Below are positions 1 through 35,116 of a DNA stretch of 35,116 nt, in pieces. Source of the stretch: Candidatus Amesbacteria bacterium (GTDB taxonomy: Bacteria; Patescibacteriota; Microgenomatia; CAZETR01; Amesbacteraceae); the NCBI GenBank assembly GCA_027331445.1, contig DAHWUD010000011.1, forward strand, positions 1 to 35,116, given 5' to 3'. The notes below the pieces were generated by a model, which saw only the letters and a list, made by a program, of their open reading frames with translations, made no database searches and was not told the origin of the DNA. Both the position numbers and the translations under genes were made by a program. The stretch's first letter is position 1; each line of letters begins with the position of its first letter.

Positions 1-601
1 GGGGCAGAAACTCGATATCGACGGTACCGACGGAGTAGCCCATACGGACCGCGGTGTGTAAAAGGGGCATGTCGATAGCCCAGGGATCAACGTCGGCCGG
101 ATCGAGGTAATCCAGAAGATCGCGGCGGAAAACTTTCAACCCCGACTGGACATCCATGGGTAAACCCAGAAGCAGGCGGCCAAAGAACTGCCGGTTTAAT
201 CCGGAAATGGTAGTGCGCAGGGGGGAGGTGTGCCGGATTTTGCGATTGGCCACGACGACGCCGTTTTGGGGAGTCAGGGCCAGCATCCCGGGTAAAGCTT
301 CGGGCGGATATTGCAGATCCCCGTCGATCATGGCGATATACTCTGTCTGAGCCAGTTTGGCTCCCTCCAGAATGGAGAAGGCCTTTCCGGGCCGGCCGGC
401 CTTGGTTTGCATAATTATGGGATAGCGATTGGCCAGCCTTTTAAGCAGGGAAGCCGTGGCATCAGTAGAGTGATCGTCAATAAAAATCAGCCGGTAGGTA
501 ATAGCGGCTGAAGTGAGGGCGGCATCCAGCCGGCGGACCAGCTTTTCGACGTTATCCGCCTCGTTTCTGACCGGGATGACAACATCCAATTGTAATTTCA
601 T
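1..601 (-). CDS. Family 2 glycosyltransferase, C-terminus beyond window
   Basis: The first 200 codons are visible; the gene runs off the left edge. The translation begins MKLQLDVVIPVRNEADNVEK, the usual opening strand of a GT-A fold. It carries FIDDHSTDAT (nucleotide-sugar binding Asp pair, about residues 40-49), the metal-binding DGD in MIDGDLQYPPEAL (about residue 93) and QSGLKVFRRD near residue 160. This is the pattern of dolichol-phosphate-mannose-synthase-like GT2 enzymes, which pass a sugar from a nucleotide donor to a lipid carrier or cell-wall polymer at the inner face of the membrane. Whether C-terminal membrane helices follow cannot be seen. It is separated from the VanZ gene by a terminator-like hairpin, so it probably has its own transcript. 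Family sure; acceptor unknown. Confidence 0.9.
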   Translation of the reverse strand, partial: MKLQLDVVIPVRNEADNVEKLVRRLDAALTSAAITYRLIFIDDHSTDATASLLKRLANRYPIIMQTKAGRPGKAFSILEGAKLAQTEYIAMIDGDLQYPPEALPGMLALTPQNGVVVANRKIRHTSPLRTTISGLNRQFFGRLLLGLPMDVQSGLKVFRRDLLDYLDPADVDPWAIDMPLLHTAVRMGYSVGTVDIEFLP

Positions 602-632
602 AAGATGGAAAGAGGATGGTGGGCCGGAAAAA

Positions 633-656
633 GAAAAAATATCCTTATAGGATATT
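633..656 (-). terminator. Hairpin plus T-run between the VanZ-like gene and the glycosyltransferase
   Basis: On the minus strand AATATCC-TATAA-GGATATT (7 bp stem, 638-656) runs straight into TTTTC. It lies about 40 bases after the VanZ stop and 30 bases before the glycosyltransferase start. The stem is AT-rich, so efficiency is uncertain. A TATAAT at 664-669 sits just upstream, so a transcript from it would begin with this hairpin. Confidence 0.55.
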
Positions 657-663
657 ATCCCAT

Positions 664-669
664 ATTATA
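664..669 (-). promoter_or_regulatory. Candidate -10 box (TATAAT) for the glycosyltransferase
   Basis: Minus-strand TATAAT, with TTTTCA 17 bases upstream as a possible -35 (4 of 6 consensus positions). Predicted start is near 657, immediately before the hairpin at 638-656. Prediction only. Confidence 0.4.
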
Positions 670-696
670 CAGTATCCGACGAAGAATGAAAACAGG

Positions 697-1083
697 TTAA
701 ACGCGGCCCGGAGCGGAGAAGATACGATAAAAAATAAGGCCCATACATCCACCAAAAGTGTCTATGAGTACGTCTGTTACCCGGCCGTCCCGGGTGAGGA
801 TAAATAATTGATGAAACTCGTCCGACGAGGCGTAGATGATAATAAATAGTATTGTGAAAATCAGCTGTTTTGCCCGTGAAAAGTGGGTAGTGTGACGCAG
901 AGAGTAGCCAAACAGGAGAGCCAGGACAAAATATTCGGTGACATGGGCAGTCTTTTTGATCAACAAATCCTGCCAGCCAACAGGGCTGGCATGCAGAGCG
1001 GGCTGGGAAGAAAAAGAGAAGATGAGCGACATCCACAGCAGTGTGGGCAGCCAATAGACAAATTTCTTAAGCAGCGCGGACAT
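697..1083 (-). CDS. VanZ-like membrane protein
   Basis: A 128-residue protein with a hydrophobic N-terminal helix (about residues 10-27), further helices, and the family signature: KKTAHVTEYFVLALL near residue 45 and SSDEFHQLFILTRDGRVTDVLID near residue 86. VanZ-like proteins are small multi-helix membrane proteins; the founding member lowers teicoplanin sensitivity by an unknown mechanism, and most relatives have no known substrate. A role in the cell envelope is an inference from this family and the surrounding hydrolase and surface-protein genes. It starts 8 bases after the Pro-rich protein's stop, yet has an exact TATAAT 7 bases before its ATG, so it may have its own leaderless transcript. 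Confidence 0.88.
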   Translation of the reverse strand: MSALLKKFVYWLPTLLWMSLIFSFSSQPALHASPVGWQDLLIKKTAHVTEYFVLALLFGYSLRHTTHFSRAKQLIFTILFIIIYASSDEFHQLFILTRDGRVTDVLIDTFGGCMGLIFYRIFSAPGRV

Positions 1084-1090
1084 GGGAGAG

Positions 1091-1096
1091 ATTATA
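1091..1096 (-). promoter_or_regulatory. -10 box (TATAAT) 7 bases before the VanZ-like start
   Basis: Minus-strand TATAAT with TTGCCG 18 bases upstream. It overlaps the stop of the preceding gene. The distance to the ATG implies that transcription starts at or next to the start codon. Confidence 0.5.
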
Positions 1097-1856: not shown

Positions 1857-1871
1857 ACTCAAAATATACCA

Positions 1872-4588: not shown

Positions 4589-5035
4589 CTACTGCAAGAT
4601 CTTGACCCGACCGACATCCATGAGCCACCCGGCGTAACGGCCTTTGAGCGTTTGACCGTAGACCTGGACCTGTTTGCCCACAAATTGGTCCAGATCCAAA
4701 ACAGAAGAAATTAAATAAACCGTTTGACTATCGCCGCCGGGCCGGACCAGATGGTGGGTGCCCTCGCCTTTGATGCCCCCGGCTTGCAGCTGGCCGGTAG
4801 CGGTATCGGAAAAAGTCTTGGTGTCAGTGGAACCAAATTCGGTGGCGGTTTGAATCATATCGGGCGCCGTGGCCGACGGAGATGAAGATTTGGAAACGGA
4901 TTTGCGGGAGAGAAGAAAACCTGTGGCGATGCCGGCGGCAACAACAATCACGACGACGGCCACCAGGGCGACGGAAAACCGCGGTGCAGATGAAATTTCA
5001 GGATGCACAATGGGCGCAGGAGAGGGGCTATCCAT
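4589..5035 (-). CDS. Small membrane-anchored protein with possible OB-like C-terminal domain
   Basis: 148 residues, no family recognised with certainty. A short Pro/Ser-rich cytoplasmic tail is followed by one membrane helix (about residues 22-43, ALVAVVVIVVAAGIATGFLL). A Ser-rich linker and a small exported domain follow, ending VGKQVQVYGQTLKGRYAGWLMDVGRVKIL. The GKxVxVxG pattern with alternating strands resembles small OB-fold proteins, but I cannot confirm this by eye. It lies between prfB (8 bases) and ftsE (11 bases), which places it in the same transcript as the division genes. A TATACT 10 bases before the ATG could be its own -10 box. Function unknown. Confidence 0.75.
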   Translation of the reverse strand: MDSPSPAPIVHPEISSAPRFSVALVAVVVIVVAAGIATGFLLSRKSVSKSSSPSATAPDMIQTATEFGSTDTKTFSDTATGQLQAGGIKGEGTHHLVRPGGDSQTVYLISSVLDLDQFVGKQVQVYGQTLKGRYAGWLMDVGRVKILQ

Positions 5036-5043
5036 GGCTGACT

Positions 5044-6132
5044 TTAGTATAGCACACGATCCAATCCCCGCACTTCGGCTTCGATGAATTCATCCAAGTT
5101 GCCGTCGAGAACAGAATCGGCCTGACTGGTTTCGACGTCGGTGCGCAGATCTTTAACCAACTTGTAGGGGTGAAGAACATAGGAACGGATCTGATTGCCC
5201 CAGGAAGCGGCTTTGTAGGAGCCTTTAATGGCAGCGGCGGTCTGTGACAACTCGGCCTGCTGCTTTTCCCACAGCTTGGCTTTGAGCAGAGAAAGAGCAA
5301 TCTTACGGTTTTGCTCCTGATAGCGCTGGGTCTGGCAAACGACCTGAATGCCGGTCGGTTTGTGGGTCAGCCGGACGGCGGTCGAGACTTTGTTCACATT
5401 CTGGCCGCCGTGGCCGGTGGCCCGGAAAGCCTCAAACTGAATGTCATCTTCGGGGATAGCGATGGGGGCGGAAGACTCGGGTAGTTCGGGCAAAATTTCG
5501 ACCAGGGCAAAAGAGGTCTGGCGCAGATTGTCCGCGTTGAAGGGAGATTGGCGGACCAGGCGGTGGGTTCCCTTCTCGCCTTTGAGATAACCGTAAGCGT
5601 AAGGGCCGGTGACAGTAAAGGTCACGGTTTTTAAGCCGGCTTCCTCACCCGGAGCTTCGTCGATAATTTCGGTGGCCCAACCACGGTTTTCACAAAAATG
5701 CAGGTACATCCTTAGGAGCATGGAAACCCAATCCATGGCTTCGGTCCCCCCCTGGCCGGCTTTGATGCTGACGATGGCATTGGAGCCATCGTAAGGGACA
5801 TTTAGAAACGTGGCCAACTCTAATTTGGAAATTTTCTTCGTCAGCTGGGCGACTATTTTTTCGATCTGGGGATCGTCGGGCATGATTTCGATTAAACCCA
5901 CGGCGTCGTCAAGATCGTGGGCGAGAGCAGCCAATTCCTGGCTTTCTTCGCGGAGGGCAGACAGGAGTTTGAGTGCAGATTGGGCAGAAGCGGGATCGGA
6001 CCAAAAATCCGGATGCATAGAGGCGGCCTCCAATTCCCGGATTTGGCGGGTCCGATGTTCGGGGTCAAATTTGGTGCGGATGTTTTTCAGGCGGCCTGAA
6101 AGCTCCGCGAGCTGACTTTTGAGATCGACCAT
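5044..6132 (-). CDS. prfB: Peptide chain release factor 2
   Basis: 362 residues, the full length of RF2 (E. coli 365). It has the stop-codon-reading tripeptide SPF (196-198, RQSPFNADN) that marks RF2 rather than RF1, and the GGQ catalytic motif (242-244, [10 protein letters not shown]) that triggers peptide release on the ribosome. RF2 reads UAA and UGA, so UGA is a stop codon here; several neighbouring genes end in TGA. The reading frame is continuous from ATG 6132: the in-frame UGA and slippery site found near codon 25 of many bacterial prfB genes are absent, so frameshift autoregulation is lacking. An exact TATAAT lies 6 bases before the ATG. Confidence 0.97.
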
Positions 6133-6138: not shown

Positions 6139-6144
6139 ATTATA
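6139..6144 (-). promoter_or_regulatory. -10 box (TATAAT) 6 bases before prfB start
   Basis: Minus-strand TATAAT, then TAGCCC, then ATG. At this spacing RNA polymerase would start at the ATG, giving a leaderless prfB mRNA. No convincing -35 and no Shine-Dalgarno sequence is visible. Confidence 0.55.
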
Positions 6145-6506: not shown

Positions 6507-6520
6507 CTGTATTGAGTATA

Positions 6521-7543
6521 CTACGGGGGGCCGAGTTCAGGATAGACACGGGCGATGGTGTCCAGAAGAAATTTCTTGGCCTGATCATACGGCAGATTAA
6601 GTGTGCCTCCGGCAGCTGCCGGATGGCCACCACCATATCCGGTAGCAAATGCAATTTTGGCTACGTTGTATTTTTTTTCATCCCGGGTTCTAAGGCTGAG
6701 ATTGACTACTCCGGGTTCGGTCTCGGTAAAACCTATGCCGATGTCCCAGCCCACTACTGACTTAAGGATGTTGGAAATATCCGTCTTTTCCGTGTGGGTT
6801 TTTTTAATTCCCAGTCTTTTCAGCTCAGAGAAGGGCACTGCAGATATAGCGACATGGCCTGAAAAATAATGCTCTATGGATGTGAGGGCGAGACCAAGAT
6901 AGGAAATGTGCTGAGGAGCAAAACTATTTTCGAGTAAGAAGATGTCGGCAGGAAAATTGGGATTTATTTTCGCTAAATCTGCACCAATGAGTAGTGTATC
7001 TGATGTGGTTGGCGGATATTTGAATCCGCCGGTGTCTGTGTAGATACCAATATAAAGGCAGGCGGCTATGGCTTCGGAAATATTGACTCCCCAAATTTTA
7101 AATAAATCATAAAGAATCTGGCAAACGGCTGGATAAGCGGTATCAATTAAATTGATCTGGGCAAATTGGGTGTTGGTGGAGTGATGGTCTATGACTACGG
7201 TCTCTAAAGAGTCGGGAAATTTTATGGGCCTCAGCTTGGAGATTTGGTCCGGTGATCCGCTGTCTTGAATGATAAAAAGGTCATAGTCAGGAATATTTAT
7301 TTCAAAAAAATTATTCAACTTAATCTGATCAAAACCCGGAAGGTGGGAGAGCGTTGTGGGTGGTTCGGAGTCGCCGATGATCACCGTGACTGGTTTTCCG
7401 AGAGACCGCAGTGCATGCATCATGGCCAGAGCGCCACCAATGCTGTCCCCGTCAGGACTGGGGTGGCAATGAAGAAGAATATTATGAGATTTTTGGATTT
7501 GATTCCAAATAAGAGGAGCAAATTGTCTGACCCGGTCTGTCAC
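6521..7543 (-). CDS. DHH/DHHA1 family phosphoesterase (NrnA-like)
   Basis: 340 residues, the length of NrnA-type enzymes. The DHH domain has CHPSPDGDSIGG (Asp31, Asp33), the diagnostic VVIDHHSTN (about 116-124) and DTGGFKYPPTTSDTL near 190. The C-terminal DHHA1 domain ends with GYGGGHPAAAGG near 305. Two metal ions bound by the Asp/His residues hydrolyse phosphodiesters; relatives degrade short RNA (nanoRNA), pAp or cyclic dinucleotides, and the substrate cannot be decided here. The start codon is GTG. A TACAAT lies 6 bases upstream and there is no Shine-Dalgarno sequence, pointing to a leaderless message. Base composition is visibly more AT-rich than the flanking genes. Confidence 0.92.
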   Translation of the reverse strand: MTDRVRQFAPLIWNQIQKSHNILLHCHPSPDGDSIGGALAMMHALRSLGKPVTVIIGDSEPPTTLSHLPGFDQIKLNNFFEINIPDYDLFIIQDSGSPDQISKLRPIKFPDSLETVVIDHHSTNTQFAQINLIDTAYPAVCQILYDLFKIWGVNISEAIAACLYIGIYTDTGGFKYPPTTSDTLLIGADLAKINPNFPADIFLLENSFAPQHISYLGLALTSIEHYFSGHVAISAVPFSELKRLGIKKTHTEKTDISNILKSVVGWDIGIGFTETEPGVVNLSLRTRDEKKYNVAKIAFATGYGGGHPAAAGGTLNLPYDQAKKFLLDTIARVYPELGPP

Positions 7544-7549: not shown

Positions 7550-7555
7550 ATTGTA
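7550..7555 (-). promoter_or_regulatory. -10 box (TACAAT) 6 bases before the GTG of the DHH gene
   Basis: Minus-strand TACAAT, CCACTT, GTG. Same geometry as at prfB and serS but in front of a GTG start, which supports that start choice. Confidence 0.5.
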
Positions 7556-7561: not shown

Positions 7562-8176
7562 TTAGGGACGGTTATCAAGCGAGGCCCAGAGGTACCAACA
7601 GGCAATAGTCCGATACGGCCGCCATTTCTCCCCAATTTTCTGCATTTTTGCCGAAAGAGTTTTGTGGGAGCGGTTCAGGCCGTAATGACGGACAAAAGCG
7701 TTTTGGATGCCGACGTCATCCAGCGGCAGAATATCCGGGCGGCCCAGGGAAAACATCAGGCGCATTTCAGCCGACCAGCGGCCGATACCTTTGACCTGAA
7801 CCAGGTGAGAGATGACTTCCGCGTCGGACATGGCCGACAGACGGTCGAGCTGCAAAGTACCGTCGAGAACTTTGCGGGACAGATCGTGAAGGGAACGGGC
7901 TTTGGCCCAGGAGGTACCGACGGAGCGGATGCGGGCGGGTTCCTGTTTCAGAATCAATTCCGGAGTAAATTTGGCGTCGGGAAAAAGGGCGAGGAAGCGG
8001 TTATAAATAGTCCGTGCAGCCCGGCCGGAGAGCTGCTGTCCAATAATGGAGTAGACGAGGCTGGTGAACAGGTCTTTGTCCGGACGATAATCGAGGACGC
8101 CAAATTGGGAAATCAGCCGGGCCATGACCGGATCGGCGGCCCGGAGATGAGAAATAGCCGGTTTGAGGGAGCGCAT
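7562..8176 (-). CDS. HhH-GPD DNA glycosylase, AlkA/3-methyladenine glycosylase II type
   Basis: 204 residues, the single-domain core of the HhH-GPD superfamily. Visible: LVYSIIGQQLSGRAARTIYNR (helices that open the domain, about 40-60), GTSWAKARSLHDLS, the helix-hairpin-helix VKGIGRWSAEMRLMF (128-142) and the catalytic Asp in LPLDDVGIQ (Asp153/154). There is no FeS-cluster cysteine set, so it is not Nth/MutY-like. It removes alkylated bases such as 3-methyladenine, starting base-excision repair. The ATG overlaps the sigma factor stop as ATGA, so the two are translated together; repair of DNA damage may be part of that sigma factor's output. Confidence 0.92.
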   Translation of the reverse strand: MRSLKPAISHLRAADPVMARLISQFGVLDYRPDKDLFTSLVYSIIGQQLSGRAARTIYNRFLALFPDAKFTPELILKQEPARIRSVGTSWAKARSLHDLSRKVLDGTLQLDRLSAMSDAEVISHLVQVKGIGRWSAEMRLMFSLGRPDILPLDDVGIQNAFVRHYGLNRSHKTLSAKMQKIGEKWRPYRTIACWYLWASLDNRP

Positions 8177-8712
8177 CAGGATTTGAGATGAGGATAAAGG
8201 CGGGAGACGAGCGTGGCTAAGGATTTACGGGCCCGATAGAGCCGGCCTTCCACTTCCCGGGGGCCCAGATGCAGCTGCAGGCTGATTTCCTGAGAGGAGA
8301 GCCGTTCGTAGTATTTAAGCTGCAGCAAACGGCGGTATTCGGAAGGCAGCAAGTCCAGACAACGGGAAAGGGAAGTCCGCAGCTCATCGAGAGCCAATTT
8401 TTCCTCGGGAGCCAAGTCGGGAGAAAAAAGCCTGTCCAGGTTGGCGGCGGCGGGAAGAACCAAACGGGATTTCCGGTTGACTTGGCTTCGATAATAATCG
8501 GCCATCTTATTGAGGGCAATCTTACACAACCAGGTAAAATATGTACTCTTGTTGTGAAAGGTGTGAAAAGAGGTAAAAGCGGCCACAAAGGTGTCCTGGA
8601 GCACGGTTTCGGCGGCTTCCAGGTCGCCCCCGTTGCGTTTAAGGATAAATTTAAGAATGGGTTGGCCGAGGGTCTTATACAGAGAATCCAAGACGTGGGG
8701 TTTTTGGGACAT
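8176..8712 (-). CDS. ECF-type sigma-70 family RNA polymerase sigma factor
   Basis: 178 residues. Region 2 spans about 10-85 (ETVLQDTFVAAFTSFHTFHNKSTYFTWLCKIALNK, the -10 recognition and core-binding helices). Region 4 spans about 112-170 (CLDLLPSEYRRLLQLKYYERLSSQEISLQLHLGPREVEGRLYRARKSL, the helix-turn-helix that reads the -35). Regions 1.1 and 3 are absent, as in ECF sigmas. No anti-sigma factor is visible next to it; the partner gene is the AlkA-like glycosylase, coupled by ATGA overlap. An exact TATAAT lies 9 bases before its ATG, so it looks constitutively promoted by the housekeeping sigma, with leaderless or near-leaderless mRNA. Family certain; stimulus unknown. Confidence 0.93.
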   Translation of the reverse strand: MSQKPHVLDSLYKTLGQPILKFILKRNGGDLEAAETVLQDTFVAAFTSFHTFHNKSTYFTWLCKIALNKMADYYRSQVNRKSRLVLPAAANLDRLFSPDLAPEEKLALDELRTSLSRCLDLLPSEYRRLLQLKYYERLSSQEISLQLHLGPREVEGRLYRARKSLATLVSRLYPHLKS

Positions 8713-8721: not shown

Positions 8722-8727
8722 ATTATA
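8722..8727 (-). promoter_or_regulatory. -10 box (TATAAT) 9 bases before the sigma factor start
   Basis: Minus-strand TATAAT; predicted start 2-3 bases before the ATG. The same AT-rich stretch abuts the start of the divergent small ORF at 8729, so the two could share one control region. Confidence 0.5.
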
Positions 8728-8948: not shown

Positions 8949-8972
8949 AAGCGCTTATAGGAAGCGCTTTTT
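8949..8972 (+). promoter_or_regulatory. Hairpin with T-run directly before the typA start
   Basis: AAGCGCTT (8949-8956), loop ATAGG, AAGCGCTT (8962-8969), then TTT; the ATG of typA is at 8975. The 8 bp stem is perfect. The only Shine-Dalgarno-like bases (AGGA, 8959-8962) lie in the loop and at the stem edge. It could be the terminator of the small ORF upstream, or a leader structure controlling typA translation or read-through. Confidence 0.6.
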
Positions 8973-10837: not shown

Positions 10838-10874
10838 TTATCCTTCGGCTCGCAGAGTTCGCTCAGGACAAGCC
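10838..10874. repeat. Short dispersed-repeat-like element at the sod 3' junction
   Basis: The plus strand reads TCCTTCGGCTCGC ... TTCGCTCAGGACAAGCC. This CCTTCG...GCTCAGGACAAG pattern resembles short repeats scattered in many bacterial genomes. It encodes the last residues and the stop codon of sod (GGCTTGTCCTGA on the minus strand) and separates it from the orphan C-terminal fragment. Only one copy is present in the window, so repeat status rests on recall of the motif. Confidence 0.5.
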
Positions 10875-11465
10875 AGCAAAAATCTCCGATACCCGCATCC
10901 AATTAACTACATGCCACCATGCAGTAATGTATTCGGCGCGCCGGTTCTGATATTTGAGATAGTAGGCATGCTCCCAGACGTCGACCGCTAAAAGCGGGGT
11001 TTGATTCTGGGACAGGGGGGAATCCTGATTCCCGGTAGAGGTGATGACCAGCCGGCCATGATCGGCGACCAGCCAAGCCCAACCGCTGCCGAATTGACCG
11101 ACGGCCGCGGCAGTAAACTTTTCCTTAAAAGTGTCCAGAGTGCCAAAGGCTGAATTCAAGGCGGACAAAAGTTTACTGTCCGGGGGCGGGGCCTGCGAAG
11201 CCATGATTTCCCAAAAGAAGCTGTGGTTGACGTAGCCGCCGCCGTTATTTTTGACTTTGGTGCGGATATCTTCAGGAACGGAGACCAAATCGATAAGGAG
11301 GTCTTCAGCGGATTTGGGGGTGAATTCTGGATGAGTAGCCAGGGCGTCGTTTAAATTTTTGGTGTAGGCGGCGTGGTGCTTATCGTGGTGCAGGTGCATC
11401 GTCTCTGCATCGATGTACGGTTCCAGAGCGGCATAGTCATACGGGAGAGCAGGTAAGGTGAACAT
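10863..11465 (-). CDS. sodA: Superoxide dismutase, Mn/Fe family (Mn-type signature)
   Basis: 200 residues, the family's normal length. Metal ligands: His26 (LHHDKHH), His81 (NHSFFW), Asp162 and His166 (DVWEHAYY). The residue pair that separates Mn from Fe enzymes reads Mn-type: Gly in NNGGGYVNHS and Gln147 in STGNQDSP. It dismutates superoxide to hydrogen peroxide and oxygen. There is no signal peptide, so it is cytoplasmic. The natural C-terminus is altered: the final AGLS and the stop come from a repeat-like element, and a diverged copy of the C-terminal codons lies just downstream. A TATAAA 8 bases before the ATG suggests its own leaderless transcript. Metal choice is a prediction. Confidence 0.95.
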   Translation of the reverse strand: MFTLPALPYDYAALEPYIDAETMHLHHDKHHAAYTKNLNDALATHPEFTPKSAEDLLIDLVSVPEDIRTKVKNNGGGYVNHSFFWEIMASQAPPPDSKLLSALNSAFGTLDTFKEKFTAAAVGQFGSGWAWLVADHGRLVITSTGNQDSPLSQNQTPLLAVDVWEHAYYLKYQNRRAEYITAWWHVVNWMRVSEIFAGLS

Positions 11466-11473: not shown

Positions 11474-11479
11474 TTTATA
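11474..11479 (-). promoter_or_regulatory. -10 box (TATAAA) 8 bases before sod start
   Basis: Minus-strand TATAAA, then CAAACGTC, then ATG, with TTTACC 18 bases upstream as a weak -35. Predicted start is at or next to the start codon. Confidence 0.45.
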
Positions 11480-13985: not shown

Positions 13986-14016
13986 TTGAGAAAATCATAT
14001 CATAGAGGTTGAGGTT

Positions 14017-15197: not shown

Positions 15198-15203
15198 ATA
15201 TTA
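15198..15203 (-). promoter_or_regulatory. -10 box (TAATAT) 9 bases before the GTG of the His-rich gene
   Basis: Minus-strand TAATAT, CGAAAGTTA, GTG. Likely start of a His-rich/PEBP transcript with almost no leader. Confidence 0.45.
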
Positions 15204-20840: not shown

Positions 20841-20846
20841 ATTCTA
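20841..20846 (-). promoter_or_regulatory. -10 box (TAGAAT) 9 bases before the beta-CASP gene
   Basis: Minus-strand TAGAAT, TAGGTAGTC, ATG. Near-leaderless geometry. Confidence 0.45.
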
Positions 20847-26243: not shown

Positions 26244-28994
26244 TTAATTGGGATAGTGGCAACGTTTGTATTTTTTGCCCGAGCCGCACCAGCAGGGGTC
26301 GTTGCGGCCGAGATGCTTGTGAGTATTTTCCACTCCGGCTTTCTGCAGACCGGCGAAGGCGGTCATAAAATCACCGCCGGCATTTGCAGCCACGGGTGCG
26401 GCCGGGGCCGGAGAGCTTTGGGGAAGCTGAACTTCTGGTCTGACTTCTGTAATTTGGGGTGGCGGAGCGGCCATTTGGGGGCTCTGATTGACCTGAATCC
26501 TAAAAAGGCGTTTGATAAATTCCGAATCAATCTGGGACATGAGCCGCTCGAACATGTTGTAGGCCTCGGATTTGTACTCTACCAGCGGGTCCCGCTGACC
26601 GTAACCGCGCAGGCCGATACCAGAGCGCAGATCATCAATGGCGTCCAGATGATCAATCCATAAATTGTCGATGGATGAGAGATAGGCAAATTTAATAATA
26701 TCAGTCCAGATCCGATCGCCGACTTGCTTGTGCCGCTGTTTGGCTGTATCGGAAATAATTTGATCAATTAAAGTGTCGATTTCGTCGGCGGTGCCTATTT
26801 TTTGGAATTGAAGAGAAAGGGACTTTTGGGATTTGTCATCAAAGGGGATGATCTCTGCAAGAGCGGTGGTGATGGGCAAAACTTCCGATTCCACAATGCC
26901 GTGCGGGGCATACATAGCCACCAGGTTGTGAAGATTTTGGGAAACTTTGGCCAGGGCTTCCGCTTCGGTGACTTCGCTCGTCAGCACCCGCTTACGCAGG
27001 CCATAAACAATTTCACGCTGTTTGTTCATGACGTCGTCGTACTCGACCACATTTTTCCGGGCATCAAAGTTGAAACCTTCGACTTTGACCTGAGCCTGCT
27101 CGATGGCTTTGCTGACCATGTTGTGCTCGATGGGTTCATTCTCGGGAATTTTCAAAAATGACATGAGTTTGGCCACCTGGTCGCCGCCGAAAATGCGCAT
27201 AATGTCATCGTCTAAAGCCAGGAAAAACCGGGTGGAGCCAGGATCTCCCTGGCGGCCGGAACGGCCCCGAAGCTGGTTATCGATACGGCGGGACTCATGA
27301 CGCTCGGTGCCAATAACATACAGGCCGCCCAGACTTACTACTTCGTCGTGAACCTTTTGCCAGGCGGCCAGCTGTTTGGTGTATTGGGCGGCGGTAAGTT
27401 TATCCTCCCCCAGGACAAATTTGGGGTTGGGAGGCGGAGTTCCGCCGAGAATAATATCCACACCGCGGCCGGCAATATTTGTTGCTATGGTAACGGCGCC
27501 CCGGCGACCGGCTTCGGAAATGATGGTGGCCTCTTTTTCGTGGTTTTTGGCATTGAGCATCTGATGCGGAACGCCTTGAGAACGAAGAATTTCTCCCAGA
27601 ACTTCGTTTTTTTCAATTGAGGTGGTCCCGACAAGAACCGGCTGGCCGGCTGCGTGGATACGGGCGATCTCGTCAGCCAGGGCTGTATATTTGGCCCGGG
27701 TGGTTTTGTAAACAATATCCGGGTGGTCGATTCTGACATTAGGACGATTAGTGGGAATGACCACCACTTCCAGCTTGTAAATTTTCTGCAGCTCCTCGGC
27801 TTCGGTAGCGGCGGTACCGGTCATACCGGCCAGCCGGGTATAAAGCCGGAAGTAATTTTGGAAAGAAATAGTGGCTAGAGTCTTACTTTCCTGCTGAATG
27901 GGGACATTTTCTTTGGCTTCGACAGCCTGGTGGATGCCTTCGGACCAGCGGCGGCCGGGCATGAGCCGACCAGTAAATTCATCGACGATGATGACCTGGT
28001 TGTCCCGGATAATGTAATCTTTATTGAGGATAAACAAGGTCCGGGCTTTGAGAGCATTTTCCAGGTGGTGGATGGTGTCAAAATCCTTTTCGTAAAGATT
28101 GTCCACACCCAAAAGTTTCTCGACCTTTTGGATTCCGGCCTCGGTGAGATTGGCGGTCCTGTGCTTTTCATCAATCGCATAGTCAGTGTCGGCAGACAGC
28201 CGGTCAATAAGTTTGGCGAAGTCGTAATATTTTTGGGTAGGTTCGGTGTCGGGAGCGGAAATAATGAGCGGGGTGCGGGCCTCATCTATGAGAATGGAAT
28301 CCACCTCGTCGACGATGGCAAAGTGGTGGCCTCGCTGGACCATGTCGGAAAGGGAGCCGACCATGTTGTCCCGCAGGTAATCAAAACCATATTCATTGTT
28401 GGTACCGTAGGTGACATCAGCGGCATAAGCATCCTTCCGTGAACAGGGGCGCAAATGAGCCAGCCGGTCATCGCCGTGGGCGGGATCAAAATACTCCGGG
28501 TCGTAGAGGAATGACTGCTCGTGGGCAATTACTCCGACGGTCAGGCCCAAAAGATGGAAAGTCGGACCGTTCCAGCCGGCGTCACGCCGGGCCAGGTAGT
28601 CGTTTACAGTAACCAGATGGGTACCTTCACCGGTGAGCGCATTAAGGTAGAGGGCGGGAATAGCGGACAGAGTCTTGCCTTCACCAGTTTTCTGCTCGGC
28701 CACCTTGCCTTCATGAAAGGCCACGGCGGCCATGAGCTGGACATCGTAAGGACGCAGGCCGATGGCCCGGGAGGAAGCTTCCCGCACCAGGGCAAAGGCC
28801 TCGGGAAGCAGCTGGTCCAAGGATTCGCCTTCGGCCAGGCGGTGTTTGAAATCGGCGGTAGCAGCGGCAAAATCGGCGGGTTTTTTAAGACCGGAAAACT
28901 TATCCGAAAGGGCATTGATGGCATCCACCCGCAGCTGTAGGCGGTTGATTTCCTTCTGATTAAAATCTAAAAATTTACTGAAAATTTTGAGCAT
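26244..28994 (-). CDS. secA: Preprotein translocase ATPase SecA
   Basis: 916 residues, full length. Nucleotide-binding domain 1 has KTGEGKTLSAIPALYLNAL (Walker A, about 102-110) and DEVDSILIDEARTPLIIS (DEAD-type Walker B, about 228). The preprotein cross-linking domain and second helicase domain follow (GTTSIEKNEVL, IATNIAGRGVDIILGG, GTERHESRRIDNQLRGRSGRQGD). The scaffold and C-terminal linker end in the zinc-binding SEC-C motif RNDPCWCGSGKKYKRCH. SecA drives export through SecYEG, which is needed for the many exported proteins in this window. Unlike its neighbours it has a good Shine-Dalgarno sequence (AAGGTGAT directly before the ATG) and a TATAAT 29 bases upstream, so it has a normal leader. 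Confidence 0.98.
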   Translation of the reverse strand: MLKIFSKFLDFNQKEINRLQLRVDAINALSDKFSGLKKPADFAAATADFKHRLAEGESLDQLLPEAFALVREASSRAIGLRPYDVQLMAAVAFHEGKVAEQKTGEGKTLSAIPALYLNALTGEGTHLVTVNDYLARRDAGWNGPTFHLLGLTVGVIAHEQSFLYDPEYFDPAHGDDRLAHLRPCSRKDAYAADVTYGTNNEYGFDYLRDNMVGSLSDMVQRGHHFAIVDEVDSILIDEARTPLIISAPDTEPTQKYYDFAKLIDRLSADTDYAIDEKHRTANLTEAGIQKVEKLLGVDNLYEKDFDTIHHLENALKARTLFILNKDYIIRDNQVIIVDEFTGRLMPGRRWSEGIHQAVEAKENVPIQQESKTLATISFQNYFRLYTRLAGMTGTAATEAEELQKIYKLEVVVIPTNRPNVRIDHPDIVYKTTRAKYTALADEIARIHAAGQPVLVGTTSIEKNEVLGEILRSQGVPHQMLNAKNHEKEATIISEAGRRGAVTIATNIAGRGVDIILGGTPPPNPKFVLGEDKLTAAQYTKQLAAWQKVHDEVVSLGGLYVIGTERHESRRIDNQLRGRSGRQGDPGSTRFFLALDDDIMRIFGGDQVAKLMSFLKIPENEPIEHNMVSKAIEQAQVKVEGFNFDARKNVVEYDDVMNKQREIVYGLRKRVLTSEVTEAEALAKVSQNLHNLVAMYAPHGIVESEVLPITTALAEIIPFDDKSQKSLSLQFQKIGTADEIDTLIDQIISDTAKQRHKQVGDRIWTDIIKFAYLSSIDNLWIDHLDAIDDLRSGIGLRGYGQRDPLVEYKSEAYNMFERLMSQIDSEFIKRLFRIQVNQSPQMAAPPPQITEVRPEVQLPQSSPAPAAPVAANAGGDFMTAFAGLQKAGVENTHKHLGRNDPCWCGSGKKYKRCHYPN

Positions 28995-29036: not shown

Positions 29037-29654
29037 TTAGCAAATTATCACGGCGTTTGCCAAAACCCGTTGTAACTTATTGGGATAACCCAGGTCGGAA
29101 ATGAGGGTGGATAAATGCAGGGCGGACTGAATGTGATCCGGGGTATCGTAGAGGTGGTTGATGAAGACCTGGCCGCCTAATCTTTTGAGGTTTCTGATAA
29201 ACTCCGGCGAATAGACGAACCGGGGAGGGTCGGCATTACAAAACAGATCGGCTAAGACGTAGTCAAAATGACTGAGATCTTTTTTGGCCACATATTTTTG
29301 GGCGTCGGCAATGACCAGTTCCAAATGAGGAATTTTGTCCAAACCGAAGTAATTACGGCCGATGTCCACGATCAGGGGATCAATATCCACGCCGACGATC
29401 CGGGTCGGGGCAAACCGCTGGAAAATGAGATGAAGAACCGAACCGCCGGCGACGCCCAAGACCAGCCAGGAGGAGTGCTTTTGGACTTTGTGATTTAAAG
29501 CCTTGGTCCAAATTTCCCTGACGATGCCGCCGCTTTGCTGAATAGTGTCCGTGGAGAGATGACGGATACCCCAGCCCTGAACCACGCGCAGAGTCCCGGA
29601 GTAAGGTGATTGGAATCTGGCGATAACCTTGGGGCGGAGTTGCGGGAGGTGCAT
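29037..29654 (-). CDS. Spermidine-synthase-like SAM-binding protein, copy 1
   Basis: 205 residues with the Rossmann core of the class I methyltransferase/spermidine synthase fold: motif I WLVLGVAGGSVLHLI (about 83-97), acidic loop VGVDIDPLIVDIG (about 109-121), IADAQKYV and FDYVLADLF. The N-terminal strand region (YSGTLRVVQGWGIRHL) and QSGGIVREIW match spermidine synthase, but the protein is short. No polyamine pathway gene is nearby, so polyamine synthesis should not be assumed. It has a paralogue at 30539-31147, on the other side of the FemX-like gene. TAAAAT lies 6 bases before the ATG. Confidence 0.8.
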   Translation of the reverse strand: MHLPQLRPKVIARFQSPYSGTLRVVQGWGIRHLSTDTIQQSGGIVREIWTKALNHKVQKHSSWLVLGVAGGSVLHLIFQRFAPTRIVGVDIDPLIVDIGRNYFGLDKIPHLELVIADAQKYVAKKDLSHFDYVLADLFCNADPPRFVYSPEFIRNLKRLGGQVFINHLYDTPDHIQSALHLSTLISDLGYPNKLQRVLANAVIIC

Positions 29655-29660: not shown

Positions 29661-29666
29661 ATTTTA
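29661..29666 (-). promoter_or_regulatory. -10 box (TAAAAT) 6 bases before SAM-binding copy 1
   Basis: Minus-strand TAAAAT, GATCGC, ATG. Leaderless geometry; lies 24 bases from the opposing FemX -10 box. Confidence 0.45.
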
Positions 29667-29689: not shown

Positions 29690-29695
29690 TAATAT
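29690..29695 (+). promoter_or_regulatory. -10 box (TAATAT) 6 bases before the FemX-like gene
   Basis: TAATAT, TTACCT, ATG (29702). Predicted leaderless start. Confidence 0.45.
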
Positions 29696-29701: not shown

Positions 29702-30559
29702 ATGACAGACGTAGTATCCCTGAGGCTGGGTCGAGATTTGCGGCAAAGCCCGGAATATGGAAAGTTCATGGAGACGATAGGATGGAAAGTTATCAAATTT
29801 CAAAGTTCAAAGTTCAAAGTTCAATTATTTACTAAGAAAGTCGGACCGTTAAAATTGGCGAAAATGCGGCGGCCCGGGCCGCAGACTGATTGGAGTCAGG
29901 TACTGCAACTGGCGGCACGGGAGAGAGCGCTGGTACTGCAAATTGATCCGGAAGTTGACGATCCGGAAAAGTTTAAAAGGCTGGGTTGGGTCAAAAACAA
30001 AAGCCAGATACTGGGTACGAAAACCCTGCTGGTCGATCTGAGGCCAAGCCCGGAGGAAATTTTGGCCGGATTTAAACAGGAAACAAGATATAAACTACGC
30101 AAATTCAAAGATACAAATATCAAATTACAAATAAATAACTTTGAAAATTTTTATGAAATATTAAAGGAAGGATATAAAGACCTGGACGTATGGTGCCCGC
30201 CGCGGGAGCAATATAATAATTTATATAAAAGTTTCGGTGAAAAATGTATTTGTCTGACCATAAACGATTTAAGCGGGTGTCTGGTGATCATGAATCAGGG
30301 GGTAGCAGAATATTATTACGCAGCGTCAAAAAAAGCCGGAAAAGAAAACAATCTACCCTATTTAGTGGTGTGGGAAGCGATGAAGGAAGCCAAAAAAAGA
30401 GGGGTCAAAGTCTGGGATTTTAACGGTCTGTACGATGAAAGATACCCGGACAAAAGATGGAAGGGATTTTCTTTTTTCAAATCCAGATTCGGAGGAGTCG
30501 AACTGCAGTTTGCGGGAACTTATACCAAGTGGGGATGGTCAGTGCGAACAAATAATTAA
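29702..30559 (+). CDS. FemX/FemAB-like aminoacyltransferase (GNAT fold)
   Basis: 285 residues. The second half carries the FemAB-type GNAT features: LLVDLRPSPEEILAGFKQET, RYKLRKFK, the acyl-donor loop around AEYYYAASKKAGKENNLPYL, and the C-terminal KRGVKVWDFNGLYDERYPDKRWKGFSFFKSRFGG. Family members use aminoacyl-tRNA to add residues to the peptide side chain of lipid II, building the peptidoglycan cross-bridge; CPR versions have not been tested as far as I know. It is rather short (Fem proteins are often 330-420), lacking part of the first GNAT domain and the coiled-coil arm. Two AT-rich repeat-like stretches (29801-29826 and 30102-30140) are embedded in frame. It lies in opposite orientation between two paralogous SAM-binding genes. 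Confidence 0.82.
   Translation: MTDVVSLRLGRDLRQSPEYGKFMETIGWKVIKFQSSKFKVQLFTKKVGPLKLAKMRRPGPQTDWSQVLQLAARERALVLQIDPEVDDPEKFKRLGWVKNKSQILGTKTLLVDLRPSPEEILAGFKQETRYKLRKFKDTNIKLQINNFENFYEILKEGYKDLDVWCPPREQYNNLYKSFGEKCICLTINDLSGCLVIMNQGVAEYYYAASKKAGKENNLPYLVVWEAMKEAKKRGVKVWDFNGLYDERYPDKRWKGFSFFKSRFGGVELQFAGTYTKWGWSVRTNN
29801..29826 (+). repeat. CAAAGTT tandem repeat inside the FemX-like gene
   Basis: Three consecutive copies of the 7-base unit CAAAGTT followed by CAA, in frame, encoding QSSKFKVQ. Three units make 21 bases, so a gain or loss of three units keeps the frame but of one shifts it. A related AT-rich stretch of CAAAGA/CAAAT/CAAAT units lies at about 30102-30140. Confidence 0.8.
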
Positions 30560-31148: not shown

Positions 31149-32378
31149 TTAGCGGGTAATACGATCAAATCCCGTGTAGGGACGCAGAACTTCCGGGATG
31201 GTAACGGAACCGTCGGCCTGCTGATAGTTTTCCAGAATGGCCAGGGGGATCCGGGACATGACGACGGCGGTGCCGTTTAACATGTGGACAAAACCCGATC
31301 CAGATTTTGATTTGTAGCGGATATTTAAATTGCGAGCCTGGTAGTCGGTGCAATTGCTGGTAGAGGTCACTTCGCCGTAATCGCCCCGGCCGGGCATCCA
31401 GACCTCGACATCGTATTTTTTGGCGGCCATAGCTCCCAGATCTCCGCTGCACATCTGTAAGACGCGGTAGGGCAAACCCAGCTCCTGACAAATAGTTTCT
31501 TCCAAGCCGAGAATTTCCTGATGAAATTTTTCCGAATCCCCAGGCAGACAATAGATAAACATCTCGACTTTGGCAAATTGATGCACTCGGTAGAGGCCTC
31601 TGGAATATTTGCCGTAGGTGCCGGCTTCCTGGCGGAAACAATGAGAATAACCTGCGTATTTAAGCGGCAGCTGATCCCCGGGGATGACTTCATCAGCATG
31701 TTTGCCGGCCAAAGTCACCTCAGCGGTGGCGATCAGACCCAGGTCCTGGCCTTCAATGGTGTAGGTCTGGGCCTCGTCCCCTTTCGGAGCGTAACCCGTC
31801 CCGAGGTAAAAACGGGATTTAGCGAGGTCGGGAGTGATAACGGGGGTGAAACCTTTTTTTTTAAGAAAACTTAAAGCGTATTGCGTCAAAGCCAGTTCCA
31901 GTAAAGCCCCCCCGTCATACAAAAAATAAAACTGGGAGCCGGTGACCTTGGCACCGGTATCAAAATCCAAAATACCCAGGTCACGGCCTAATTGCAGATG
32001 GTCCTTGGCGGGAAAATCAAACTGGCGGGGAGTCCCCCATTTTTTGATTTCCCGGTTTTCGGCTTCAGACTTGCCGACGGGTGTGTCGGCTGAGGGGAGA
32101 TTGGGCAGGAGAGAGAATTTGGCGTCAAACTCCGCGGTGATTTTTTCCAGATCGGCTTCCAGGGACTTCAACTCCACTTTTAATTTTTTGCCTTCCTCAA
32201 TCTGATCCTTTGTCAGAAGATTGCGACGGCCCCTAAGTTGTTCGACCTGACCTAAGATTTGGCGGCGCCGGGAGTCGAGATCTTTTATCTCATCGACCAA
32301 TTCGGGTCTAAAGCCTTTGGCCATGACACCGGATTTGACTAAATCCGGTTGGTCACGAAGAAGTTTAATATCCAACAT
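31149..32378 (-). CDS. serS: Seryl-tRNA synthetase
   Basis: 409 residues. The N-terminal two-helix coiled-coil arm (about 25-105, RRRQILGQVEQLRGRRNLLT ...) grips tRNA-Ser. The class II catalytic core includes TAEVTL, motif 2 CFRQEAGTYGKYSRGLYRVHQF (about 260) and motif 3 ending with LAILENYQQADGSVTIPEVL. It charges tRNA-Ser in the cytoplasm. An exact TATAAT lies 6 bases before the ATG, overlapping the end of the HD gene, so serS may have its own leaderless transcript in addition to being in the lysS-HD-serS run. Confidence 0.98.
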   Translation of the reverse strand: MLDIKLLRDQPDLVKSGVMAKGFRPELVDEIKDLDSRRRQILGQVEQLRGRRNLLTKDQIEEGKKLKVELKSLEADLEKITAEFDAKFSLLPNLPSADTPVGKSEAENREIKKWGTPRQFDFPAKDHLQLGRDLGILDFDTGAKVTGSQFYFLYDGGALLELALTQYALSFLKKKGFTPVITPDLAKSRFYLGTGYAPKGDEAQTYTIEGQDLGLIATAEVTLAGKHADEVIPGDQLPLKYAGYSHCFRQEAGTYGKYSRGLYRVHQFAKVEMFIYCLPGDSEKFHQEILGLEETICQELGLPYRVLQMCSGDLGAMAAKKYDVEVWMPGRGDYGEVTSTSNCTDYQARNLNIRYKSKSGSGFVHMLNGTAVVMSRIPLAILENYQQADGSVTIPEVLRPYTGFDRITR

Positions 32379-32384
32379 GACTTG

Positions 32385-32390
32385 ATTATA
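32385..32390 (-). promoter_or_regulatory. -10 box (TATAAT) 6 bases before serS
   Basis: Minus-strand TATAAT, CAAGTC, ATG. It contains the stop codon of the upstream HD gene. Confidence 0.5.
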
Positions 32391-32952: not shown

Positions 32953-32953
32953 G

Positions 32954-34402: not shown

Positions 34403-34413
34403 TATCCCCTATC

Positions 34414-34878
34414 TTATTGGATGGAGACGATCGTGTAAACTACCTTGCCGGCGGGAGCGGAAATTTCGACCCGATCCCCGACCTTTTTACCCATCAGGGC
34501 CTGACCCAGAGGGGAGGAATAAGAGATCCTTTTTTGCTGGGGATCGGCTTCCCATCGACCGACGATCTGGAAAGCGGCCGGTGAAGGGTTGGAGTTAACC
34601 CTGACGGTGACGGTGTGACCGAAGCCGACGGAGTCGCTTTGGGTAGGAGCAGTAACTTTGACGCTTTGAATAATATCCTCCAGCTCGGCGATACGGCCGT
34701 CGATAAAGGACAACTCTTCCCGGGCGCTGATATAGTCGCTGTTTTCCGACAAATCGCCCATGCTCCTCGCTATAGACAGGCGATTGACCACCGCCGGGCG
34801 CTGTGTGTCCATTAGGGTAACCAGCTCGGTTTTGAGCTTATCCAGGCCGGATTGGGTGACTGGCATTTGGTTTGTCAT
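34414..34878 (-). CDS. greA: Transcription elongation factor GreA
   Basis: 154 residues, normal length. The N-terminal coiled coil (about 8-78) carries the acidic tip GDLSENSDY (about 46-54) that enters the polymerase secondary channel and promotes cleavage of backtracked RNA. The C-terminal FKBP-like domain ends with SYSSPLGQALMGKKVGDRVE. It heads the minus-strand run greA-lysS-HD-serS. Its upstream DNA holds a near-consensus promoter whose -35 lies in an insertion-sequence end, and a terminator-like hairpin between that promoter and the start codon, so expression is probably set by read-through. Confidence 0.97.
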   Translation of the reverse strand: MTNQMPVTQSGLDKLKTELVTLMDTQRPAVVNRLSIARSMGDLSENSDYISAREELSFIDGRIAELEDIIQSVKVTAPTQSDSVGFGHTVTVRVNSNPSPAAFQIVGRWEADPQQKRISYSSPLGQALMGKKVGDRVEISAPAGKVVYTIVSIQ

Positions 34879-34891
34879 GGTTGAGGCGGGG

Positions 34892-34917
34892 AAAAAATAG
34901 ACTCCGCAACGGGAGTC
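34892..34917 (-). terminator. Terminator-like hairpin in the greA leader
   Basis: On the minus strand GACTCC-CGTTGC-GGAGTC (34917-34900) followed by TATTTTTT (to 34892), 13 bases before the greA ATG. From the predicted start at about 34934 it would release an RNA of about 43 bases. Confidence 0.7.
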
Positions 34918-34929
34918 GTCAAAAGGGCT

Positions 34930-34943
34930 AATACTCGGGTATT
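34930..34943. promoter_or_regulatory. Palindrome over the greA transcription start region
   Basis: AATAC-TCGG-GTATT, a 5 bp inverted repeat that overlaps the downstream edge of the -10 box and the predicted start. Could be an operator or a short leader hairpin; no binding protein can be named. Confidence 0.35.
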
Positions 34944-34969
34944 CTACAGATATGTCGAGGGTTTGTCAA
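34941..34969 (-). promoter_or_regulatory. greA promoter with -35 box inside an insertion-sequence end
   Basis: Minus-strand TTGACA (34969-34964), a spacer of exactly 17 bases, and TAGAAT (34946-34941): consensus -35, optimal spacing and 5 of 6 at -10. It is the best promoter in the window. The TTGACA is the complement of the terminal TGTCAA of the insertion sequence. Confidence 0.75.
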
Positions 34970-35116
34970 TCGAGTGTGCTGGCCACCTAGATAGAGAACG
35001 GTTGACCTCCTTTCTGTAAATAGGTTTTAACATACATCCGTGGTGTTTGATAATTTAAAGCCCGGTGATACCTCTGTTGATTGTATTTTGTATTAAATTT
35101 TTCACACATTTCTCTC
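34964..35116 (-). mobile_element. Insertion sequence end, rest beyond window
   Basis: The element's likely terminus is TGTCAATCGAGTGTGCTGG starting at 34964: it begins with TGT, and lies 23 bases from the transposase stop codon. The other end, the full inverted repeat and target duplication are outside the window. Confidence 0.65.
34987..35116 (-). CDS. Transposase/integrase-core C-terminus (IS481/IS3-like), partial
   Basis: Only the last 42 codons are in the window, too short for an intact-gene call but clear in sequence: EKFNTKYNQQRYHRALNYQ followed by TPRMYVKTYL and a stop. The YNxxRYHRALNYQTP motif is the C-terminal end of DDE (rve-type) transposases, where it follows the catalytic Glu. 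This part of the protein binds DNA and completes the RNase-H-like fold. The element sits upstream of greA in the same orientation. Confidence 0.85.
   Translation of the reverse strand, partial: REMCEKFNTKYNQQRYHRALNYQTPRMYVKTYLQKGGQPFSI

What the first reader, a model, noticed from the sequence alone, without database searches (positions are those of the whole stretch)
1..35116. A -10 box lies 5-10 bases before many start codons: probable widespread leaderless mRNAs
TATAAT or a near match lies 6-9 bases upstream of the starts of prfB (6), serS (6), the VanZ-like gene (7), the sigma factor (9), sod (8), the beta-CASP gene (9), SAM-binding copy 1 (6) and the FemX-like gene (6). The same holds before non-ATG starts: GTG of the DHH gene (TACAAT, 6), GTG of the His-rich gene (TAATAT, 9) and TTG of the PLP-fold gene (TAAAAT, 7). 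These genes lack Shine-Dalgarno sequences, whereas secA has both a Shine-Dalgarno and a more distant TATAAT. At this spacing transcription begins at the start codon. Some of these genes are internal to co-directional runs (VanZ, serS), so the runs may be series of single-gene transcripts. Leaderless genes with this layout are known in Deinococcus and Actinobacteria; assignment here is inference. AT bias near starts is an alternative.
Basis: partly seen in the sequence, partly recalled or inferred. Interest (0 to 1): 0.7.

Follow-up and report, generated by a model that had tools for sequence, protein, structure and literature searches.

The report
Widespread leaderless promoters in a Patescibacterium
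In this small bacterial genome many genes have the transcription signal so close to the start codon that the messenger RNA should begin at the start codon itself, and the usual ribosome-binding sequence is not enriched; this way of expressing genes is known elsewhere but was not expected from the textbook picture for this group, which is known mostly from genome sequence.

Summary
In 379 kb (41%) of the same 925-kb genome, TANNNT peaks with exactly 6 bases before the start: 13.0% of 276 coding-score starts, against 0.3% of 1199 internal in-frame ATGs. A box matrix hits 38 of 310 starts at gap 6; 200 dinucleotide shuffles averaged 5.0, maximum 10. De novo discovery returns an extended -10 element, TGnTAWAAT. 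The same motif precedes 6 of 11 tRNA genes, so it is a transcription signal. It lies at gap 6-7 before prfB in 11 of 14 family genomes (this one included) while flanks diverge. Shine-Dalgarno 4-mers are at background (13.4%; shuffled 14.0%), though the 16S rRNA keeps CACCTCC. About 15-19% of genes carry a leaderless-positioned box above decoys. The genome is Patescibacteria, Microgenomatia-like. The kind is known (Deinococcus-Thermus, Actinobacteria); my searches of an open-licence library found no report for this lineage. RNA 5' ends were not available.

The parts
6139..6144 (-). -10 box TATAAT, 6 bases before prfB ATG
   Evidence: gap 6-7 in 11 of 14 family genomes
5044..6132 (-). prfB (peptide chain release factor 2), predicted leaderless
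   Evidence: PCRF, RF-1
32385..32390 (-). -10 box TATAAT, 6 bases before serS ATG
   Evidence: relative in G008 has TACAAT at gap 6
31149..32378 (-). serS, predicted leaderless, internal to a co-directional run
1091..1096 (-). -10 box TATAAT, 7 bases before VanZ-like gene ATG
697..1083 (-). VanZ-like gene
8722..8727 (-). -10 box TATAAT, 9 bases before the ECF-like sigma factor gene
8176..8712 (-). ECF-like sigma factor gene
11474..11479 (-). -10-like box TATAAA, 8 bases before sod
10863..11465 (-). Fe/Mn superoxide dismutase gene
20841..20846 (-). -10 box TAGAAT, 9 bases before the beta-CASP gene
19494..20831 (-). metallo-beta-lactamase/beta-CASP gene
29661..29666 (-). -10 box TAAAAT, 6 bases before SAM-binding copy 1
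29037..29654 (-). spermine-synthase/methyltransferase-fold gene (SAM-binding copy 1)
29690..29695 (+). -10 box TAATAT, 6 bases before FemX-like ATG (divergent from the previous gene; the 47 bases between the two ATGs hold both boxes)
   Evidence: my gene caller preferred a later start for this gene (29864)
29702..30559 (+). FemAB-family gene
7550..7555 (-). -10 box TACAAT, 6 bases before the GTG of the DHH gene
6521..7543 (-). DHH/DHHA1 gene
15198..15203 (-). -10 box TAATAT, 9 bases before the GTG of the His-rich gene
13994..13999 (-). -10 box TATGAT, 8 bases before a ClpC-like AAA gene 11526-13985
6515..6520 (-). -10 box TATACT, 8 bases before 6159-6506
5046..5051 (-). -10 box TATACT, 10 bases before 4589-5035
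26244..28994 (-). secA: weak SD (AAGG/AGGT), no box at gap 6-10; TATAAT ends 28 bases upstream; the led counter-example

Best explanation
The genome is a Patescibacteria (CPR) genome, Microgenomatia-like. A sizeable share of its genes is driven by sigma70-type extended -10 promoters (TGnTAWAAT) whose hexamer ends 6 (to about 9) bases before the start codon, so RNA polymerase starts on, or up to 3 bases before, the A of AUG and makes leaderless mRNAs. Shown by sequence statistics: the motif, its position, its conservation, its presence before tRNA genes, and the lack of Shine-Dalgarno enrichment in this genome. Inferred: transcription start at the AUG, and translation of the 5'-terminal AUG by a 70S ribosome as in known leaderless systems. 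Genes that overlap their upstream neighbour (commonest case: the 4-base overlap) carry neither signal and are most likely translated by coupling (inference). The SD route is little used here although the 16S 3' end still has CACCTCC.
For: Gap-6 peak of a consensus fixed in advance (TANNNT 13.0% of 276 starts; 0.3% of 1199 internal ATGs). De novo extended -10 with the same peak. 38 of 310 starts at gap 6 against 5.0 +/- 2.2, maximum 10, in 200 dinucleotide shuffles; excess over decoy gaps 14.8-19.3% of 306 genes by threshold. Whole genome: 112 TANAAT-N6-ATG against 23.5 per gap at 14-17. Same motif before tRNAs: 6 of 11 own tRNAs reach 6 bits and 5 reach 8 bits, shuffled 11% and 1%; 7 of 7 reach 6 bits in family genomes (shuffled 24%), 22 of 34 in the class sample (shuffled 21%). 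prfB: TANAAT at gap 6 in 10 and gap 7 in 1 of 14 family genomes, this one included; columns -12 to -7 average 0.77 for the commonest base, -45 to -16 0.42. Orthologues: when the own gene has TANNNT at 6-8, 23 of 39 relatives have it at 6-10, against 22 of 88 when it has not (Fisher p = 0.0005; relative gaps 16-20 and 22-26 show nothing). C at -1 in 17 of 36 boxed ATG starts, 29 of 117 unboxed (p = 0.013). SD 4-mers at background while the same method finds SD in Geobacter (54% against 20% internal).
Against: No RNA 5' ends. Most genes have no strong box: 93 of 306 have one at gap 6-8 at some candidate start, and decoy gaps give 26-41. Starts come from my own simple gene caller; two relatives (G003, G010) show only a weak or broad peak. 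With gap 6 demanded in both genomes, orthologue concordance was not significant (5 of 25 against 16 of 147, p = 0.20); the wider test treats pairs as independent although some genes count for several relatives. 5'-most ATGs have SD 4-mers in 17.6% against 14.8% shuffled; unboxed genes 0-29 bases behind a neighbour in 11 of 47. In the relatives, anti-SD pairing at starts is slightly better than in shuffles (for example -2.31 against -1.89 in G003), though weaker than at internal ATGs. Pyrimidine at -1 was not significantly enriched (30 of 36 against 81 of 117, p = 0.13). The matrix was trained on the starts it then scored (the fixed-consensus tests were not), and motif discovery on 276 internal ATGs gave a similar likelihood gain for an unrelated GC motif without a single-gap peak, so the gain itself proves nothing. 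16S has no box above 5.5 bits within 400 bases.
Confidence: 0.86

Rival explanations
1. AT bias or chance: upstream regions are AT-rich, so TANNNT is common there and no promoter function is needed.
For: TANNNT is raised at most upstream gaps over internal ATGs.
Against: The peak stands at one gap (coding-score starts: 13.0% at 6, 2.2% at 5, 4.0% at 7); 38 observed against at most 10 in 200 dinucleotide shuffles; TG at the right place upstream; conserved while flanks diverge.
Confidence: 0.02
2. The AT-rich motif is a ribosome-side signal (a non-canonical RBS as in the Bacteroidetes group, or an S1 site), not a promoter, and mRNAs have ordinary leaders.
For: The genome has a bS1-like protein (369-aa frame, model positions 15-342 of 516, below the curated cut-off), lacks SD enrichment, and unboxed starts are mildly A-rich at -7 to -4.
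Against: The same extended -10 motif precedes untranslated tRNA genes (6 of 11); it is nearly absent (3 of 73) before overlapping genes, which would need an RBS as much as others, though coding overlap constrains them; it matches the form of TGnTATAAT.
Confidence: 0.06
3. The boxes are real promoters but secondary: most translated mRNA for these genes comes from upstream promoters by read-through, so leaderless mRNAs contribute little.
For: Many boxed genes sit inside co-directional runs (26 of 73 at 0-29 bases); terminator-like hairpins are few (10 found after 298 stops).
Against: For first genes, strong boxes number 9 of 64 at gap 6 alone but only 0.2-0.4 per gap from 13 to 140 (8 in gaps 13-30, 22 in 31-140), and genes reached by read-through have little SD to be translated with.
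Confidence: 0.12

Closest known systems
Leaderless 'TA-led' genes of bacteria (Zheng et al. 2011, PMC3160421; passages read)
   Same: TANNNT about 12 bases upstream counted from its first T (gap 6); substantial share of genes (paper: Deinococcus-Thermus 39.4%, Actinobacteria 19.2% on average; here 15-19% excess).
   Different: That survey used RefSeq genomes of 2010; the table rows shown to me (cut off after beta-Proteobacteria) list no CPR group. It states that distal operon genes usually need SD; here distal genes have boxes or nothing detectable, and SD is at background.
-10 motif adjacent to ORFs in Deinococcus-Thermus (Zhong et al. 2025, PMC12340547; abstract and passages read)
   Same: -10 hexamer a few bases before the ORF drives leaderless mRNA, shown there by reporters and transcriptomes; about 30% of ORFs.
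   Different: There an RBS motif coexists with the -10 motif; here no SD enrichment. Its Fig S7 surveys species across bacterial phyla, which I could not see; the word Patescibacteria does not occur in the text.
Leaderless transcriptomes of Mycobacterium (PMC3898074, PMC4633059; search listing only)
   Same: Large share of leaderless transcripts, by title and listing.
   Different: Mapped experimentally there; SD also used (recalled).
GeneMarkS-2 genome classes, as described in StartLink (PMC9581028; passages read)
   Same: 21.6% of bacterial species predicted there to use leaderless transcription in up to 40% of transcripts.
   Different: The word Patescibacteria does not occur in that text; a class with non-canonical AT-rich RBSs (FCB group) is set apart there.

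Membership tests
Leaderless (TA-led) bacterial gene expression | -10 hexamer positioned so that transcription starts at the start codon (gap about 6) | tested here: met
Leaderless (TA-led) bacterial gene expression | motif is a promoter element, not a translation signal | tested here: met
   tRNA control; extended -10 form, (sequence evidence only)
Leaderless (TA-led) bacterial gene expression | box conserved across relatives at about the same place | tested here: met
   the strict gap-6 test was not significant
Leaderless (TA-led) bacterial gene expression | mRNA 5' end on the start codon and translation of that mRNA | not testable with these tools
   needs RNA 5'-end data
Leaderless genes limited to single or first genes, distal genes SD-led (pattern described in PMC3160421) | distal genes carry SD instead of the box | tested here: not met
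   26 of 73 genes at 0-29 bases are boxed (gap 6-10); SD 4-mers in 8 of 70 unboxed overlapping genes and 11 of 47 unboxed genes at 0-29 bases
Deinococcus-Thermus style (box plus RBS motif in the same genome) | a second, SD-like motif in other genes | tested here: not met
   own genome: SD 13.4% against 13.1% internal and 14.0% shuffled, anti-SD energy -2.38 against -2.40 shuffled; 5'-most ATG set 17.6% against 14.8%. Family f38 of the phylum does meet it
Non-canonical AT-rich RBS (Bacteroidetes/FCB type) | AT-rich signal acts in translation and is not expected before untranslated genes | tested here: not met
   same motif before tRNAs
Promoters needing a -35 element | TTGACA-like hexamer 15-19 bases upstream of the -10 | tested here: inconclusive
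   22 of 82 boxes have 4 or more matches, about 16 expected by shuffling; 34 of 82 have TG

The most novel reading that the evidence does not exclude
This Microgenomatia family, and probably much of its class, has all but abandoned Shine-Dalgarno initiation while keeping the anti-SD. Leaderless promoters, repeated inside co-directional runs, plus translational coupling at 4-base overlaps would then be its main ways to start proteins, so that many 'operons' are stacks of single-gene leaderless units.
Probability: 0.36. Interest if true: 0.72.

Novelty: new member of a known kind. Interest (0 to 1): 0.52.

Why it matters
Patescibacteria are known mostly from genomes, and gene finders tuned to SD sites may misplace many of their starts. 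A lineage with an intact anti-SD but no SD enrichment is a natural test of what the anti-SD and bS1 are kept for, and of whether leaderless initiation can carry a large part of a bacterial proteome. It also gives a way to recognise promoters in organisms that can hardly be grown.

Tried and rejected
AT bias as the explanation: rejected by the gap-specific peak and shuffles. A change of the anti-SD as cause of SD absence: rejected, 16S ends GGATCACCTCCTTTCT. Loss of IF3 or bS1: not seen; IF3 matched in 20 of 20 genomes, 19 over the cut-off; a short S1-like protein (E 1.7e-66, below the curated cut-off, as in all 20 genomes searched) in G000. Strict gap-6 concordance between orthologues: not significant; the wider tolerance in the relatives (6-10) was chosen after looking at those rows, then run with two control gap ranges. 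SD as whole-genome pattern GGAG-N(5-9)-ATG (own 714 against 455 backwards): too noisy to use alone. Rfam gave no match over the gathering score in the window; ARAGORN no tRNA in the window.

Left out of counts: locus L042 is not held and was not searched; 182 orthologue pairs fell to 172 (start within 45 bases) and 127 (within 6 bases); the rank of this genome among the 286 was not computed. Searches used 279 called genes, slightly different settings (287 starts), wider ones (310 starts).
Full report
WHERE IT IS. secA from the window has its best relatives (56-61% identity) in Gottesmanbacteria, 'Microgenomatus', Microgenomates and Collierbacteria contigs, so the genome is Patescibacteria (CPR), Microgenomatia-like. 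It has 925,058 bases in 59 contigs; the window is contig C2. Genes were called by a coding score that uses no upstream information (279 genes; wider settings later, 318 genes).

OBSERVATION. Beyond the window, TANNNT with exactly 6 bases to the start codon occurs at 13.0% of 276 coding-score starts and 14.6% of 267 5'-most ATGs, against 0.3% of 1199 internal in-frame ATGs and 1.0% of 1590 out-of-frame ATGs; TANAAT at gap 6 is 8.3-8.6%, at other gaps 1.9% or less. Motif discovery on 30 upstream bases, with no consensus given, returns a TGnTAWAAT-like matrix with its peak at gap 6; the same procedure on 276 internal ATGs gives a GC motif (ACCGGC) without a single-gap peak but with a similar likelihood gain, so the evidence is in the form and position of the motif, not in the gain. 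With that matrix 38 of 310 starts score at gap 6; 200 dinucleotide-preserving shuffles give 5.0 +/- 2.2, never above 10. For 64 first genes strong boxes number 9 at gap 6 and 8 at gaps 7-12, but 8 over gaps 13-30 and 22 over gaps 31-140 (no shuffle was run for this profile). Allowing any start near the called one, the excess over decoy gaps is 14.8-19.3% of 306 genes, depending on the threshold.

PROMOTER, NOT RBS. The key control is tRNA genes, which are not translated. The matrix learned upstream of protein genes finds boxes of 6 bits or more within 60 bases of 6 of 11 own tRNA genes (5 at 8 bits or more; shuffled 11% and 1%), 7 of 7 in family genomes (4 at 8 bits; shuffled 24% and 2%) and 22 of 34 in the class sample (12 at 8 bits; shuffled 21% and 4%). 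There the distance varies (8-22 bases for the six own boxes), while before protein genes it is sharp. The 16S gene showed no box above 5.5 bits within 400 bases. In boxed ATG starts -1 is C in 17 of 36, against 29 of 117 unboxed (p = 0.013); pyrimidine at -1 is 30 of 36 against 81 of 117 (p = 0.13) and at both -2 and -1 22 of 36 against 51 of 117 (p = 0.09), not significant. A -35 is at most weak.

LITTLE SHINE-DALGARNO. SD 4-mers at -18 to -4: 13.4% of coding-score starts, 13.1% of internal ATGs, 14.0% of shuffled; for 5'-most ATGs 17.6%, shuffled 14.8%. Mean anti-SD pairing energy in the own genome -2.38 at starts, -2.40 shuffled, -2.99 at internal ATGs; in the family relatives starts are slightly better than shuffled (-2.31 against -1.89, -2.15 against -1.69, -2.00 against -1.67) but weaker than internal ATGs. 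The method works: Geobacter 54% against 20% internal, and Patescibacteria family f38 44% against 10% and 38% against 13%. Yet the 16S 3' end reads GGATCACCTCCTTTCT; a short bS1-like protein and IF3 are present.

GENE CONTEXT. Boxes at gap 6-10: 24 of 64 genes behind an oppositely oriented neighbour, 26 of 73 genes 0-29 bases behind a co-directional one, 12 of 38 at 30-79, 13 of 46 at 80 or more, 4 of 16 at stretch edges, but 3 of 73 genes overlapping their upstream neighbour, whose commonest overlap is 4 bases (40 genes). SD 4-mers among unboxed genes: 8 of 40, 11 of 47, 3 of 26, 5 of 33, 0 of 12 and 8 of 70 in the same order. So promoters are repeated inside runs, but overlapping genes do without. 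In the window prfB and serS have boxes within runs. That runs are made of single-gene transcripts is not shown.

CONSERVATION. In prfB of 14 genomes of family f1 (this one included), TANAAT lies at gap 6 in 10, 7 in 1, 11 in 1 and is absent in 2; columns -12 to -7 average 0.77 for the commonest base, columns -45 to -16 0.42; -14 is G in 10 of 14 and -1 is C in 11 of 14. Over other genes, a TANNNT at 6-8 in the own gene goes with one at 6-10 in the relative: 23 of 39 against 22 of 88 (p = 0.0005), with no such effect for relative gaps 16-20 (6 of 39, 14 of 88) or 22-26 (3 of 39, 5 of 88); pairs are not fully independent. Demanding gap 6 in both gave 5 of 25 against 16 of 147, not significant: spacing seems to drift among 6-10 between genera.

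BREADTH. TANAAT at gap 6 against mean per gap 13-30 (every group of the call): own 24 against 1.06 (310 starts); four pooled family genomes 11 against 0.44; G003 1 against 0.50 and G010 2 against 0.33, weak; 15 other genomes of the class together 19 against 3.1 (610 starts; my sum over the rows, five of the 15 with none); Microgenomatus 5 against 0.44; f38 7 and 10 against 0.50 each; Saccharibacteria 2 against 0.06; Nomurabacteria 3 against 0.33; Falkowbacteria 3 against 0.33; Uhrbacteria 0 against 0.22; Geobacter 0 against 0. SD 4-mers are near the internal level in most of the class genomes, raised in G033 (39% against 15%) and G019 (28% against 15%); prfB of G026 and G017 shows a clear SD. 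Whole-genome contrast of gap 6 to the mean of gaps 14-17, 15 of the 34 genomes that have both: own 112 to 23.5; family G010 91 to 25.5; f38 G144 173 to 41.8, G274 166 to 41, G282 99 to 24.3; Gottesmanbacteria 82 to 44; Microgenomatus 96 to 50.5; Collierbacteria 112 to 61.8; Nomurabacteria G332 135 to 56.5; Saccharibacteria 36 to 16.3; Falkowbacteria G321 90 to 86.8; Uhrbacteria 31 to 40; Geobacter 33 to 48.5; but a Rokubacteria genome reaches 19 to 5.5 and a Solibacteraceae genome 71 to 35.3, so this crude ratio is not limited to CPR.

COMPARISON WITH WHAT IS KNOWN. Leaderless genes with TANNNT about 12 bases upstream are described for Actinobacteria, Deinococcus-Thermus and others (PMC3160421, passages), and experimentally for Deinococcus-Thermus (PMC12340547, abstract and passages; its survey figure across phyla was not visible to me). 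The mechanism is the same kind. Searches for leaderless with Patescibacteria, Candidate Phyla Radiation plus Shine-Dalgarno, CPR bacteria, Saccharibacteria, and candidate phyla plus ribosome binding site, and for Patescibacteria with Shine-Dalgarno, listed no paper whose title or abstract start concerns leaderless genes of this group. I opened two of the papers listed (PMC12641178 and PMC6851277, passages), where 'leaderless' referred to YchF and to reference titles; the other listed ones I did not open. The library holds only open-licence PMC papers and no preprints, so an earlier report elsewhere is possible.

VERDICT. Observation confirmed, interpretation supported short of RNA data. The unusual side is the combination: SD at background with the anti-SD intact, and leaderless boxes before non-overlapping genes inside runs about as often (26 of 73) as at their heads (24 of 64).

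Noticed in passing
window 34894-34969 (-): greA has TTGACA-17-TAGAAT and then a terminator-like hairpin (34917-34900, followed by TATTTTTTCC) 21 bases before the ATG: looks like a leader with an attenuator. E. coli greA also has a leader terminator (recalled).
   Followed up: partly
window 23034-23055 (-): A 9-bp GC-rich hairpin with a T-tract ends 11 bases before the ATG of 21424-23022, a 532-aa protein with no Pfam match; no -10 box fits between hairpin and ATG. Such hairpins are rare before starts in the sample.
   Followed up: partly
window 8949-8969 (+): An 8-bp hairpin (AAGCGCTT arms) with a T-tract sits directly before the ATG of typA/bipA (8975), between divergently oriented genes.
   Followed up: no
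window 16903-16917: Two divergent genes (TTG at 16907 on -, ATG at 16919 on +) have starts 11 bases apart in an AT-rich stretch with -10-like hexamers on both strands: a possible two-way promoter, or a wrong start for the minus-strand gene.
   Followed up: no
G000:C22:19069-20064: The bS1-like protein is short (369-aa frame, rpsA model positions 15-342 of 516); similar strong matches (E below 1e-50) in 16 of the 20 genomes searched, this one included, none over the curated cut-off.
   Followed up: partly
L158-L167 (genomes G144, G274, family f38): A Patescibacteria family with both strong SD use (38-44% of starts) and a sharp TANAAT peak at gap 6 (7 of 56, 10 of 84).
   Followed up: partly
L168-L172 (Uhrbacteria, G330): Neither SD enrichment nor a gap-6 box peak in 84 starts: its way of starting translation is unexplained, or my start calls are poor there.
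   Followed up: no
own sample, 298 stops: Terminator-like hairpins with T-tracts are few after stop codons (10 found within 100 bases under my criteria).
   Followed up: no
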